This document shows positions 57,125 through 61,504 of a stretch of 64,000 bases of DNA, one piece after another. Below the pieces are notes generated by a model. The model worked only from the letters and a program-made list of their open reading frames with translations, made no database searches and was not told the DNA's origin. Both the position numbers and the translations under genes were made by a program. Source of the stretch: Sulfurospirillum sp. (GTDB taxonomy: Bacteria; Campylobacterota; Campylobacteria; Campylobacterales; Sulfurospirillaceae); NCBI GenBank assembly GCA_016744795.1, contig JADGDR010000002.1, positions 238,648 through 302,647 of the forward strand. Reading direction: 5' to 3'. Numbering within the stretch: the first letter of the stretch is position 1; each line of letters begins with the position of its first letter.

Positions 57125-57868
57125 CTATCCAAACTGTTGAAGTATTTTTCCTGTTATTTTATTTGACGCAATAGATTTTCTAAATTTTTCATACATTAAA
57201 TCTTGAGTTGTTTTAAGTTTTTCAACGTCTTCATTTTCACCTTTATCCAATTCTGCCATAAGCGTATCAACTAAGTCATTTTTAGAACCATCTTCAAATG
57301 TTGAATCTGCTGTATTTACTGGATTTTCTTCACCTGCATACATTTTCAAGCTATCGTATGTTTGATTGATATAATCTTTAAATTTTGAAAAAGTAGCAGA
57401 CACTTTTTCATCTGCCATATAAATTTCTTCAAATATATCTAATATATTGTTTAAAGCTTCCATGTCACACTCTACTTGAAAAGAAACATTTTTAGCTGTG
57501 ATCATACCCATACTTTGTGTTTCATCAGCACTATAAGAATAATTATCTTTTACTATTCCTAAAACAGCTTTAAGAAGATTTTCATCTGTTCCTTCATCAA
57601 GCATCTTTGTTGTTGTAGCATCAACAGCATCTGTAACTGTTTTAGAAGTTCCTTCAGGTAAAATATATACACCTATTCCTTCACCAGATTCTTTAGATGC
57701 TTTTAACTCTGGAATACTATCTATAATTTCATTTAAATACTCATCTAAACCTTTATACTCTTCTATGGTTAATGAACCGTTTTGCTCACGCTCTTTTGCA
57801 CACAAGTCTGCATATTTATTATTTTGAATAAATAATGTATAACTTGTTCCAGTTTTATCTACATGCAT
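57125..57868 (-). CDS. Acidic protein of unknown function
   Basis: 247 residues from ATG 57868 (MHVDKTGTSYTLFIQNN), chosen because AGGAGAAAAT lies directly upstream; a longer frame to 57958 reads through the 3' end of the neighbouring gene. No signal peptide or membrane helix; predicted mostly helical and acidic (GLDEYLNEIIDSIPELK, NILDIFEEIYMADEK), ending GKILQQFG. No family recognised. It follows the double-glycine protein gene in the same direction, so it might belong with it. Confidence 0.7.
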   Translation of the reverse strand: MHVDKTGTSYTLFIQNNKYADLCAKEREQNGSLTIEEYKGLDEYLNEIIDSIPELKASKESGEGIGVYILPEGTSKTVTDAVDATTTKMLDEGTDENLLKAVLGIVKDNYSYSADETQSMGMITAKNVSFQVECDMEALNNILDIFEEIYMADEKVSATFSKFKDYINQTYDSLKMYAGEENPVNTADSTFEDGSKNDLVDTLMAELDKGENEDVEKLKTTQDLMYEKFRKSIASNKITGKILQQFG

Positions 57869-57942: not shown

Positions 57943-58341
57943 TTAATATACACCCCACTTAGCTTTTTTACCATATAAGTTTATTAACCGAGTATTTTCA
58001 GTTCCATACCCTTGGTAGCTATACCCATTAACAGTATAACTTATCCATAAAGAAGAACTTCCTGTTTTCATTTTTCGGTAATACATATTAGCTGGAAAAT
58101 TTCCATTATATCCTTCAGTTAGATGACCTTTGGATTGTGTATACATTGAATTTGAAGTAATATAGTCACGTACATAATTACCACCAACAACCTCTTTCAT
58201 TTGATTTGAACTAAGCTCAAATGAAGAACCTGATACTTTGCCAGCTGTTGCTAGATTTAAAAGATCTGATTTAGCAGTATCTACTGCACCTGCGAAACTC
58301 ATTACTGCACATATTGACATTGTGAGTAAAATTTTTTTCAT
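57943..58341 (-). CDS. Sec-exported protein with double-glycine leader motif
   Basis: 132 residues. A Sec signal peptide (1-19, MKKILLTMSICAVMSFAGA) is followed by a propeptide ending FELSSNQMKEVVGG. Counted back from Gly54, the residues Leu-12, Ser-11, Met-7, Val-4, Gly-2, Gly-1 match the consensus of double-glycine leaders cut by C39 peptidases. The 78-residue mature part (from Asn55) is rich in Tyr, Ser, Gly, Asn and Lys with basic charge, like a secreted peptide or fibre subunit. A perfect AGGAGG lies upstream, so it is probably highly translated. The adjacent gene encodes an exported C39-type peptidase. Confidence 0.85.
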   Translation of the reverse strand: MKKILLTMSICAVMSFAGAVDTAKSDLLNLATAGKVSGSSFELSSNQMKEVVGGNYVRDYITSNSMYTQSKGHLTEGYNGNFPANMYYRKMKTGSSSLWISYTVNGYSYQGYGTENTRLINLYGKKAKWGVY

Positions 58342-58388
58342 GTTTTCCTCCTAAGGAAAGATATTGAAAAATATACAAAAAATGCATA

Positions 58389-58431
58389 TTTCCCTAGCTA
58401 AATCTTACAAGCTAAAAATTAGCTAGAGAAA
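58389..58431. other. Imperfect hairpin upstream of the double-glycine protein gene
   Basis: TTTCCCTAGCTAA and TTAGCTAGAGAAA form a 13-bp stem with one mismatch and a 17-base loop, in the 92-base gap between the C39 peptidase and its presumed substrate gene. A second perfect stem (ATCACTTTTT / AAAAAGTGAT, 58433-58456) covers the peptidase stop codon. Together they could attenuate transcription or set separate mRNA levels. Confidence 0.5.
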
Positions 58432-58433
58432 TA

Positions 58434-58988
58434 TCACTTTTTCAATAAAAAGTGATAGCTAGCGATAGGTTTTAATTTTTTCTTTTTTTTAGGAACAATA
58501 ACTAATATATAACCACCTTTGTCGTACCAAATACTGTAAAATTCTGACTTACTCATAAGGCGTTTACCACTTGTTGGGTCGAGTGATAAAAAATAATCTC
58601 CTTTTATATTTTGTATTACAATAAAATGTGGATAATTTTTATGACGAATCACACGTGCAATGACTGGAATAGTAATTTTTTCAAATATTTCTTTGGTTAT
58701 TTTATAACCTTTGGCTTTATATCCGTGAATATTTGCTACTTTTTGTATGTCGTCAAAATTAACCATATTGCTTGTGTTAAAGTCACTAAGTAAATCTTCC
58801 TCAATTACATTTTCATTATACATATTCATTAATGTTGCTAGAGAAGCTGCACCGCATGACTCTTCATATTTTTGAGGAATAACATCTTTAAAACGTACCT
58901 CTTGAAAGGATTTAACATTAAATATACTACTGGCAAATGTGATATTTACCAGTAAAAATAAAATTAAAATTTGTGCCATAATGAACAT
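58434..58988 (-). CDS. Exported stand-alone C39-type cysteine peptidase
   Basis: 184 residues (181 if started at the internal ATG 58979). N-terminal signal peptide (about 1-20, AQILILFLLVNITFAS), then a C39 fold with catalytic Cys45 in EESCGAASLATLM, oxyanion Gln39, His121 in NYPHFIVIQN and Asp137 in LSLDPTSG. There is no ABC transporter domain, unlike bacteriocin exporters, so it should act in the periplasm. FapD of Pseudomonas amyloid operons is a precedent for a periplasmic C39-like protease. The start overlaps the end of the barrel remnant; the likely substrate gene follows. Confidence 0.88.
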   Translation of the reverse strand: MFIMAQILILFLLVNITFASSIFNVKSFQEVRFKDVIPQKYEESCGAASLATLMNMYNENVIEEDLLSDFNTSNMVNFDDIQKVANIHGYKAKGYKITKEIFEKITIPVIARVIRHKNYPHFIVIQNIKGDYFLSLDPTSGKRLMSKSEFYSIWYDKGGYILVIVPKKKKKLKPIASYHFLLKK

Positions 58989-59674
58989 GCGATACTACTA
59001 TCTGGTGCACTTGAGCTATTACCTACAGAAGTAGAAATACTAAAAGCATTATTCTCATTTATGCTATAAGTTATGCCAAATCCCATTGTAGGCAAATTTG
59101 TAGAAGGGTTAACTTCCATTCCATTTTCTTTTACTTCTGTTTGATATCGTTGTTCAAAATTAAGATTAAGTGATATATCAGGGTTAAGTATAAATGATAT
59201 GTCAAGACCAACAGCATAACTATCGGGATAATCTATTTTTGAACTTCCTACTTTTTTTTCAAAGTTCTTTAGAATAGATGCATATACTGTTGTAATTAAT
59301 GGATCAGAAAAATATTGTAGTTTTCCTCTAAGAGAAATTGCTTTAAAATAGTTAGTGCCATATTCTGAATTAAAGTATGGATTTTCATAAATAGGTATTT
59401 GTATGGTTATAGAGGGCTTTAATTTACTATTAATTGAATCAAAAGAATAATCAAAGCCAACCCATAAAGAATCAAAGTTTGCTTTTTCTTCATCTTCATA
59501 ACCAGTAAAACTATTATATTGAAGTACTTGATAAGCTCCTGTTGTACTTAATATAATGTCTAGTTTTTCATTATATGCATATAATAATGTTTCATTTAAT
59601 ACAAATTTTTTACTATCTATAAGTAATTGTCCATCATCAAAACTTACTAAATTTGGATATGTACCAAACTTATT
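58964..59674 (-). pseudogene. Outer-membrane beta-barrel protein, N-terminus missing
   Basis: An open frame of 236 codons with no start codon: TAA at 59675-59677 precedes it and the first Met is about 170 codons in. The translated sequence has alternating strands (LDIILSTTGAYQVLQY, SKLKPSITIQIPIYENPYF, GLDISFILNPDISLNLNFEQRYQ) and ends SSIACSLWHKF, with the C-terminal aromatic residue typical of BAM-assembled barrels. It overlaps the C39 peptidase start by 25 bases, so the two were an operon. Resembles 'transporter'-type barrels; a FapF-like role is a guess. Confidence 0.72.
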
Positions 59675-59740
59675 TTAATATATTATTGTAATATATATTA
59701 TAATAATAAGATTAAAGCAAAAGCTTACGAAAATTAATGG

Positions 59741-59989
59741 TCAGGTCATTCAAATTATTATCGTCTTTCTCTTATCTAGATTAAGATTATATAAAAATTG
59801 ATGGAAATATAAAGAACCTCGATACTGATAAACATTCATTAGCAATATTTGAAACTATTATGACTCTTTGTAAGAAGATGCATTATCCAGTTCTTGCAGA
59901 GTACGTTCATAAAAATTTTTTTAGATATAATTACTACTTACAATGTAGATTATGCTCAAGGCTTTTACATAGAAGCAATATTTAATTAA
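59741..59989 (+). pseudogene. Remnant of an EAL-domain (c-di-GMP phosphodiesterase) gene
   Basis: Three frames in succession read like the C-terminal half of an EAL domain: SGHSNYYRLSL (59741 on; compare DFGSGYSN), DYIKIDGNIKNLDTDKHSLA through MHYPVLAEYVH (59785-59910), and after a frameshift in an A/T run DIITTYNVDYAQGFYIEAIFN (59924-59989). KIDG, AE and DYAQGFY are family hallmarks. In-frame stops and no start show it is dead. It marks a rearranged junction next to the truncated barrel gene. Confidence 0.72.
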
Positions 59990-60157
59990 ATAAACTCTAT
60001 TTTTAATCTTAATTTTTATTTTTTATACACTTAAAAAACGATATAAGACTTTTAAAGAATTCTATTAATATAAAACTTAATAAAAAAAATTAGTTTATTT
60101 TGCAATATTTAATTTTTATTTAGATATTATTAATGCTTTATTTTAGTAAGGAGTTTT
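59990..60157. other. AT-rich intergenic segment before the symporter gene
   Basis: No gene seen. TATTAT at 60125-60130 is a possible -10 box for the symporter gene, and AAGGAG at 60148-60153 its ribosome-binding site. Confidence 0.4.
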
Positions 60158-61504
60158 ATGAGTACGGCAAGATTTAGTAAATTTGGTTTTATTCTAGCAG
60201 CAGTTGGTTCTGCAGTTGGGCTAGGAAATATATGGAAATTTCCTTATGTTACAGGTGAATATGGTGGTGGAGCCTTTGTATTAGTATATTTGATAACAGC
60301 TCTTTTTATAGGAGTTTTTGTTTTAATTAGTGAGTTGCTTATTGGTAAGCTTGGACGTAGTGATGCTGTGAGTATGTTTGAAAACTTAGCAACTAAAAAT
60401 AAAAAGTTTTGGAAATTAGCAGGTTTTGTGATTGTAGTTCCATTAATTATTTTATCTTATTATTCAGTAGTAATTGGTTGGATACTTCATTATATTGTTT
60501 TGTCTTTTCAATTTCTTCCTTCTACTGTAGAAGAGTCAAAAAATATTTTTATGACTCTATTAACCTCTGATGTCAAAACACAACTTTTTTACCATACATT
60601 AGTTTTTTTATTGGTTATGACTATTATTTTACGTGGAGTAAAAGATGGTATTGAAAAAATTAATAAAATTTTAATGCCATTGTTAGCAGTGATTTTATCA
60701 ATTTTATTTATATACTCTATTTCAGTTGAAAGTTTTTCAAAAGCAGTTTATTTTATGTTTAATCCAGATTTTACAAAATTAACATCAACAGCAATAATAG
60801 TAGCAATTGGACAAGCATTTTATACACTCTCACTAGGTATGGGTATAATTATCACTTATGCAGCTTCATTACCAAAAGGAACGAATATTTTTAAATCGTC
60901 TCTTTTAATTACTATAATAGATACTACAGTTGCTCTAGTTGCAGGACTTATAATCTTTACACTTCTGTTTGATAAAGGAGCAGAATCGACTAAAGGAGCT
61001 GGTTTAGTATTTATATCTCTTCCTTCAGTTTTTTATGAGTTTGGTGATATGGGTTCCATTTTAGCAGTTCTGTTTTTTGTGGCTATTGCCTTTGCTGGGA
61101 TTACATCTGCTATATCTATGCTTGAACCTACTGTTTTATATCTTATTTCTAGATTTCATTACTCTAGAAAAAAAGCAGCAGTTATATGCAGTATATTCTT
61201 TTATATTCTTGGAATTGCAGCACTGTTGTCAAATATTACAGATTATGCTCCTATGTTAAAAATTGGAGGTAAGGGTCTATTTGATTGGTTAGATTTTGTG
61301 GCTTCTACTATTTTAGTACCATTGGGCGGTATTTTAGTTGTAGTTTTTGTTGGGCATTTTATGGATGAATCTGAAATTAGAAAAGAACTAGTTCCTTTAA
61401 TGGGTAATCTTTTAACAGAAATTTGGTTTTTAATGGTTAGGTATATTATTCCATGTGCTCTGATCGTCGTGATTTTAAATGAAACAGGACTTTTAAAGTT
61501 CTAA
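60158..61504 (+). CDS. Sodium-dependent transporter (NSS/SNF family)
   Basis: 448 residues, about eleven membrane helices. The N-terminus RFGFILAAVGSAVGLGNIWKFPYV-type segment (here KFGFILAAVGSAVGLGNIW) forms the sodium and substrate site of LeuT-fold neurotransmitter:sodium symporters. AFYTLSLGMGIIITYAA in helix 6 is the other half of the site. Likely imports an amino acid. First of three genes with a binding protein and a class IV aminotransferase. Confidence 0.93.
   Translation: MSTARFSKFGFILAAVGSAVGLGNIWKFPYVTGEYGGGAFVLVYLITALFIGVFVLISELLIGKLGRSDAVSMFENLATKNKKFWKLAGFVIVVPLIILSYYSVVIGWILHYIVLSFQFLPSTVEESKNIFMTLLTSDVKTQLFYHTLVFLLVMTIILRGVKDGIEKINKILMPLLAVILSILFIYSISVESFSKAVYFMFNPDFTKLTSTAIIVAIGQAFYTLSLGMGIIITYAASLPKGTNIFKSSLLITIIDTTVALVAGLIIFTLLFDKGAESTKGAGLVFISLPSVFYEFGDMGSILAVLFFVAIAFAGITSAISMLEPTVLYLISRFHYSRKKAAVICSIFFYILGIAALLSNITDYAPMLKIGGKGLFDWLDFVASTILVPLGGILVVVFVGHFMDESEIRKELVPLMGNLLTEIWFLMVRYIIPCALIVVILNETGLLKF

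What the first reader, a model, noticed from the sequence alone, without database searches (positions are those of the whole stretch)
57943..58988. Possible periplasmic double-glycine maturation system: exported peptide precursor plus exported stand-alone C39 peptidase
Double-glycine leaders are normally cut in the cytoplasm by a C39 domain fused to an ABC exporter. Here the precursor has a Sec signal peptide in front of a propeptide ending ELSSNQMKEVVGG, which matches the leader consensus at -12, -11, -7, -4, -2 and -1. The adjacent peptidase also has a Sec signal, keeps Cys45, His121, Asp137 and Gln39, and lacks any transporter domain. Both would meet in the periplasm, releasing a 78-residue Tyr/Ser/Gly-rich product. 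FapD of Pseudomonas functional-amyloid operons is a precedent for a periplasmic C39-like protease; a double-glycine substrate next door would be a distinct design that I do not know as described.
Basis: partly seen in the sequence, partly recalled or inferred. Interest (0 to 1): 0.88.

Follow-up and report, generated by a model that had tools for sequence, protein, structure and literature searches.

The report
Periplasmic double-glycine peptide maturation cassette
The window carries part of a gene cassette, found across Campylobacterota and on Campylobacter plasmids, in which a small protein appears to be exported by the Sec pathway, trimmed after a Gly-Gly motif by its own exported C39 peptidase, and in complete copies released through a FapF-like outer-membrane channel; it shows what such exported peptidases probably recognise, although a similar arrangement was published for Neisseria in 2025.

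Summary
The 132-residue protein has a Sec signal, a propeptide ending LSSNQMKEVVGG and a 78-residue product; the peptidase is an exported stand-alone C39 enzyme with intact active site. Relatives in Campylobacter, Helicobacter, Sulfurimonas and Arcobacteraceae give 75 distinct precursors sharing the leader (GG in 74, L-12 in 69, E-8 in 65), with identity falling from about 95% to 15% exactly after GG. Of 24 leader-bearing genomes, 22 have the C39 gene; so do all 42 precursor-bearing plasmids. A FapF-like outer-membrane gene overlaps the C39 start, completing a plausible export route. In this genome, however, the channel gene lacks its 5' end, the usual companion is absent, and the precursor's last codons lie in native chromosomal sequence: the copy is partial and may be inactive. 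The design has a precedent: the gonococcal nap island (PLoS Biol 2025) pairs GG peptides with NapP (C39) and NapF (FapF-like), with periplasmic cleavage proposed. New here: the tandem Sec plus double-glycine leader as a family signature, shuffled folded products, Cj0814-type companions, and spread on Campylobacter plasmids. Cleavage and function are untested; a bacteriocin-like role is most likely.

The parts
57943..58341 (-). Precursor, 132 aa: Sec signal + propeptide + Gly-Gly + 78-aa product
   Evidence: ORF; leader model hit; only such leader in the genome
58285..58341 (-). Sec-type signal peptide MKKILLTMSICAVMSFAGA (cut site AGA|VDTAK inferred by eye)
   Evidence: sequence; the 63 precursors with a complete N-terminus all have a hydrophobic one
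58180..58284 (-). Propeptide VDTAKSDLLNLATAGKVSGSSFELSSNQMKEVVGG with double-glycine leader pattern
57946..58179 (-). Predicted mature product, 78 aa, net charge +6, 12 Tyr; matches no other core found
58434..58979 (-). Exported stand-alone C39 peptidase (start at MAQIL; the 58988 start adds MFI)
   Evidence: PF03412 E 3.4e-25; FapD-like; active site conserved
58964..59674 (-). FapF-like outer-membrane channel gene, 5' end (about 63 codons, signal included) missing: probable pseudogene
   Evidence: NF058560 E 4e-5; 45% identity to L052 homologue from residue 64
58964..58979 (-). Overlap of channel stop and C39 start, repeated in many loci
58345..58436 (-). Intergenic hairpin region between C39 and precursor, followed by a strong ribosome-binding site
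   Evidence: RNA fold z -4.6
57125..57868 (-). 247-aa genus gene downstream; NOT the cassette's companion
   Evidence: 89% identical in same-genus genome G091 without the cassette; unlike the companions
57943..57955 (-). Native sequence forming the last codons of the precursor (cassette junction at about 57956)
   Evidence: homology to G091 ends at 57955

Best explanation
A two-signal secretion cassette. The precursor enters the periplasm by Sec and loses its first signal. The remaining propeptide, with the classic double-glycine leader pattern, is recognised by the Sec-exported C39 peptidase and cut after Gly-Gly in the periplasm. In complete relatives the mature protein then leaves through the FapF-like outer-membrane channel whose gene overlaps the peptidase gene. 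The leader stays constant because one peptidase reads it, while the product behind it is exchanged like a cassette; a bacteriocin-like or kin/competitor-directed role is the most likely use. In this genome the channel is truncated and the companion absent, so the copy may be silent. Shown: anatomy, linkage, conservation. Inferred: Sec export, cleavage, channel use, function.
For: Held-out leader score. 75 precursors with fixed leader positions. Model without the GG motif still finds GG/GA/GS behind 72 of 76 ORFs, three of the others being truncated frames. Identity drop exactly at GG. 22 of 24 leader genomes have C39; 42 of 42 plasmids. Active site intact. Channel gene FapF-like and overlapping C39. 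No other C39 and so no C39-ABC exporter in the genome. [quoted passage not shown] Same parts in the nap island (PMC11798529).
Against: No experiment shows cleavage. Channel truncated here, with no second copy. Some genomes have a window-type C39 without a recognisable precursor (G154, G268, G050, G157). Co-occurrence is not corrected for shared ancestry. Signal peptides were judged by hydrophobicity only.
Confidence: 0.78

Rival explanations
1. In this genome the locus is a decaying fragment: the family works as described, but the truncated channel and lost companion leave no functional system here.
For: Channel lacks its 5' end and there is no second copy; precursor 3' end lies in native DNA and the companion is absent; broken channel or C39 copies are common in relatives.
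Against: Precursor and C39 frames are complete, with intact catalytic residues, signal peptides and leader.
Confidence: 0.5
2. The product is not antibacterial: it is a signal, an autolysis factor or a surface protein.
For: Nap peptides did not inhibit other bacteria in plate tests but promoted stationary-phase autolysis (PMC11798529). The main companion class matches a family named flagellar-dependent secreted rather than an immunity protein. The main product family is a folded domain of unknown type.
Against: Cationic products in 66 of 75; small plasmids with little cargo besides the cassette; matched core and companion types; Acinetobacter version with a small membrane protein in the immunity position.
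Confidence: 0.4
3. A Fap-type functional amyloid system, with the precursor as fibre subunit.
For: FapD-like peptidase and FapF-like channel; Tyr/Ser/Gly-rich window product.
Against: Main product family predicted as a compact folded domain, pLDDT 91; no Fap subunit family hit on the precursor; products are exchanged and short, without amyloid repeats.
Confidence: 0.07
4. The C39 peptidase cuts something else (for example the channel) and the leader only serves as a docking tag.
For: FapD's target was unknown and FapF itself was considered (PMC5557850).
Against: Canonical leader positions and the abrupt loss of identity exactly after GG.
Confidence: 0.06

Closest known systems
nap island of Neisseria gonorrhoeae (NapA/B/C, NapP, NapF; PMC11798529)
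   Same: GG peptides, stand-alone C39 peptidase, FapF-like channel; cleavage in the periplasm proposed; horizontally acquired; cationic products
   Different: Nap products are 16-36 aa, here mostly about 80-160 aa and folded; the authors suggest a holin-like NapH for the inner membrane, whereas the precursors here carry a Sec signal; here Cj0814-type or EF-hand-type companions instead of NapI/NapH/NapR
Fap functional amyloid system (FapD, FapF; PMC5557850)
   Same: Sec-exported C39 peptidase encoded with a FapF-like channel
   Different: No FapB/FapC-type amyloid subunit; canonical GG leader present (absent from Fap proteins according to the paper); channel about 285 aa and matched only to the C-terminal part of a 420-position model; FapD score below cut-off
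Class II microcins / double-glycine bacteriocins with C39-ABC exporters (PCAT)
   Same: Leader consensus L-12, S-11, E-8, M/L-7, V/I-4, GG and a C39 peptidase of the same family
   Different: No ABC exporter; [quoted passage not shown]
FilB, putative pilus-system C39 peptidase (NF050078)
   Same: C39 peptidase outside an ABC exporter; E 1e-10
   Different: Far below its cut-off (41 of 475 bits); no paper found

Membership tests
nap-type cassette (GG peptide, C39, FapF-like channel) | Small cationic precursor with GG motif | tested here: met
   GG leader; product net charge +6, though longer than Nap peptides
nap-type cassette (GG peptide, C39, FapF-like channel) | Stand-alone C39 peptidase | tested here: met
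nap-type cassette (GG peptide, C39, FapF-like channel) | Intact FapF-like channel | tested here: not met
   Truncated in the window; complete in many relatives
nap-type cassette (GG peptide, C39, FapF-like channel) | NapI/NapH/NapR accessory genes | not tested
   Not searched for with models; other companions found instead
Fap functional amyloid | FapD above the curated cut-off | tested here: not met
   74.7 of 330 bits
Fap functional amyloid | FapF channel with long N-terminal periplasmic part | tested here: not met
   Relatives about 285 aa; matches only positions 315-416 of 420
Fap functional amyloid | FapB/FapC amyloid subunits with repeats | tested here: not met
   No such family hit on the precursor; main core family predicted as a folded domain
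PCAT / type I secretion class II microcin | C39 fused to an ABC exporter | tested here: not met
   184-aa peptidase alone; only C39 in the genome
PCAT / type I secretion class II microcin | N-terminal double-glycine leader without Sec signal | tested here: not met
   Leader pattern met, but a hydrophobic Sec-type signal precedes it
Bacteriocin | Kills or inhibits related cells, with cognate immunity | not testable with these tools
   needs growth-inhibition assays
Periplasmic maturation at GG | Cleavage after GG by the C39 peptidase in the periplasm | not testable with these tools
   needs N-terminal mass spectrometry in wild type and C39 mutant

The most novel reading that the evidence does not exclude
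A distinct secretion route (Sec, then periplasmic C39, then FapF-like channel) with a tandem Sec plus double-glycine leader, dedicated to rapidly exchanged folded proteins of undescribed fold, each paired with a matched partner protein and spread by Campylobacter conjugative and small plasmids; the same rule (leader-like motif behind a Sec signal, next to an exported C39) would hold for FapD-, NapP- and FilB-like peptidases in general.
Probability: 0.35. Interest if true: 0.82.

Novelty: new variant of a known kind. Interest (0 to 1): 0.64.

Why it matters
The substrate of FapD-type periplasmic C39 peptidases was left open in 2017. This family offers a clear substrate signature conserved over many genera, which makes the question directly testable with purified parts. 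It also gives a likely role to gene cassettes annotated as hypothetical on widespread Campylobacter jejuni and C. coli conjugative plasmids, and a set of exchanged secreted proteins with an undescribed fold.

Tried and rejected
The 247-aa gene downstream of the precursor was first taken as its companion and rejected: it is unlike the companion families and occurs in a same-genus genome without the cassette. The two main companion families are not detectably related. PDB fold searches with the core and the companion gave nothing significant. Pfam gave nothing useful for the cores. No second channel or C39 copy was found in the genome. Literature searches on FilB, Cj0814 and Campylobacter C39 brought nothing relevant; the nap paper was listed and read. 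The Neisseria stretch fetched for comparison contained a C39 gene but was not analysed further. Base composition gave no sign of recent transfer (28.6% against 29.8% G+C).

Full report
Observation. The 132-aa precursor has a Sec-type signal, a propeptide ending ELSSNQMKEVVGG and a 78-aa remainder. The neighbour is a C39 peptidase (PF03412, E 3.4e-25). Its nearest named families are FapD (NF058616, 74.7 bits, cut-off 330) and then ABC-fused C39 domains. Gln39, Cys45, His121 and Asp137 are invariant among 12 relatives. It is the only C39 gene in the genome.

Is the leader real? A profile of propeptides taken only from distant relatives, with the signal peptide left out, scores the window at 23.8 bits; the best of 2000 shuffles reaches 8.7, and the next of 429 window ORFs has E 1.2 against 8e-7.

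Relatives. In a sample of 399 genomes of the order, 51 have C39 relatives. A scan of named genomes gave 49 loci, nearly all in Campylobacter, Helicobacter, Sulfurimonas, Sulfuricurvum and Arcobacteraceae. Around these lie 75 distinct precursors. Position counts: L-12 69, S or N-11 64, E-8 65, V or I-4 68, GG 74 of 75. To avoid circularity a model without the last 13 residues was used: 76 ORFs reach its end and 72 carry GG, GA or GS behind it. Of the other four, three are truncated frames and one has KG.

Modularity. Within a locus, precursors with near-identical leaders differ in the product: identity is about 95% up to Gly-1, 38% at +1 and about 15% from +2 on (29 pairs). Leader DNA is 91-100% identical, and the 60 nt upstream are sometimes identical too. 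A shared processing signal with exchanged cargo would leave this trace, and the drop exactly at Gly-Gly is the best in-silico evidence for the cleavage site.

Co-occurrence. The leader reaches GG at E < 1e-6 in 24 of 399 genomes, and 22 of these have the C39 gene; the hypergeometric P is 4.5e-20 without correction for phylogeny. Among 72,556 plasmid records, 42 hold a relative of a C. jejuni plasmid precursor, and all 42 are among the 47 Campylobacter records with the C39 gene (many are clonal). The 7.1-kb C. volucris plasmid p9726 carries channel, C39, companion and precursor besides replication and mobilisation genes. A 10.4-kb C. jejuni plasmid carries three precursors, two of them annotated bacteriocin.

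Channel. The C39 gene overlaps an upstream outer-membrane protein gene. The profile of that protein finds FapF crystal structures as its only hits below E 0.01 (9e-5), and NCBIfam also names FapF for it. In many loci its stop codon overlaps the C39 start in the same way, which argues for joint translation.

State of the window copy. The channel gene begins only at residue 64 of its homologue, behind a stop codon and an AT-rich stretch, and there is no second copy. The 247-aa gene behind the precursor belongs to the genus and occurs in G091 without the cassette. DNA homology to G091 runs to position 57955, into the last codons of the precursor. A cassette fragment therefore sits beside native DNA, and the precursor's C-terminus may have been altered at the junction. 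The C39 and precursor frames are intact, so activity cannot be excluded.

Companions. 57 of 75 precursors are followed within 150 bp by a same-strand gene, mostly without a signal peptide. All 22 aligned members of the largest class match NF046095, the Cj0814 family called flagellar-dependent secreted; the basis of that name was not checked. A second class has weak EF-hand matches. Core type and companion type go together (35:0 against 5:8, Fisher P 3e-6), as for toxin and immunity or for substrate and chaperone.

Product. The largest core family (41 sequences) is predicted as a compact alpha/beta domain, pLDDT 91, without a PDB counterpart. The window core belongs to no cluster, so its structure is unknown. 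Most cores are cationic (66 of 75). Two Helicobacter MAG loci have cationic cores of 18-25 aa, several with Cys.

Wider rule. Ten more distant exported-C39 loci in the order were examined. Leader-like motifs ending GQ, GE, GA or AQ occur in 14 of 42 exported neighbours of the C39 gene and in 0 of 14 exported proteins farther away (small sample, crude signal test). The Acinetobacter plasmid pTR11_4 has the same layout, with GA and a small membrane protein between precursor and peptidase.

Known systems. FapD acts in the periplasm, needs its cysteine, and its target was unknown in 2017 (PMC5557850). The gonococcal nap island combines GG peptides, NapP (C39) and NapF (FapF-like); its authors propose cleavage in the periplasm and found stationary-phase autolysis rather than killing of other bacteria (PMC11798529). 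The finding is a new variant of a described kind, not a new kind.

Verdict. The mechanism has strong comparative support and no direct test, and the biological role is open.

Noticed in passing
L131:4156-7520; 47 Campylobacter plasmid records: The full cassette, annotated mostly as hypothetical proteins, lies on many Campylobacter jejuni and C. coli conjugative plasmids.
   Followed up: partly
L134:4314-5943: Acinetobacter plasmid pTR11_4 (6.3 kb): exported C39, exported precursor with LSNQEMKDTQGA and a Gly-rich product, and a small membrane protein between them.
   Followed up: partly
L044, L045, L047, L048, L049, L050, L063, L069, L070 near the C39 gene: Exported neighbours of more distant C39 peptidases carry leader-like motifs ending GQ, GE, GA or AQ.
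   Followed up: partly
L033:117-530, L082:344-3600: Very short cationic products (18-25 aa, several with Cys) behind the same leader in Helicobacter MAGs.
   Followed up: no
window 58345-58436: Stable hairpin between C39 and precursor (fold z -4.6); possible attenuator, processing site or terminator.
   Followed up: no
L039, L040, L041, L051, L058, L092, L102, L106, L109, L114: Channel gene (in some loci also C39 or precursor) broken into several frames in many relatives: frequent decay or phase variation.
   Followed up: no
window 59675-60157: AT-rich stretch (20% G+C) between the truncated channel gene and the transporter gene at 60158, where the channel's missing 5' end would lie.
   Followed up: partly
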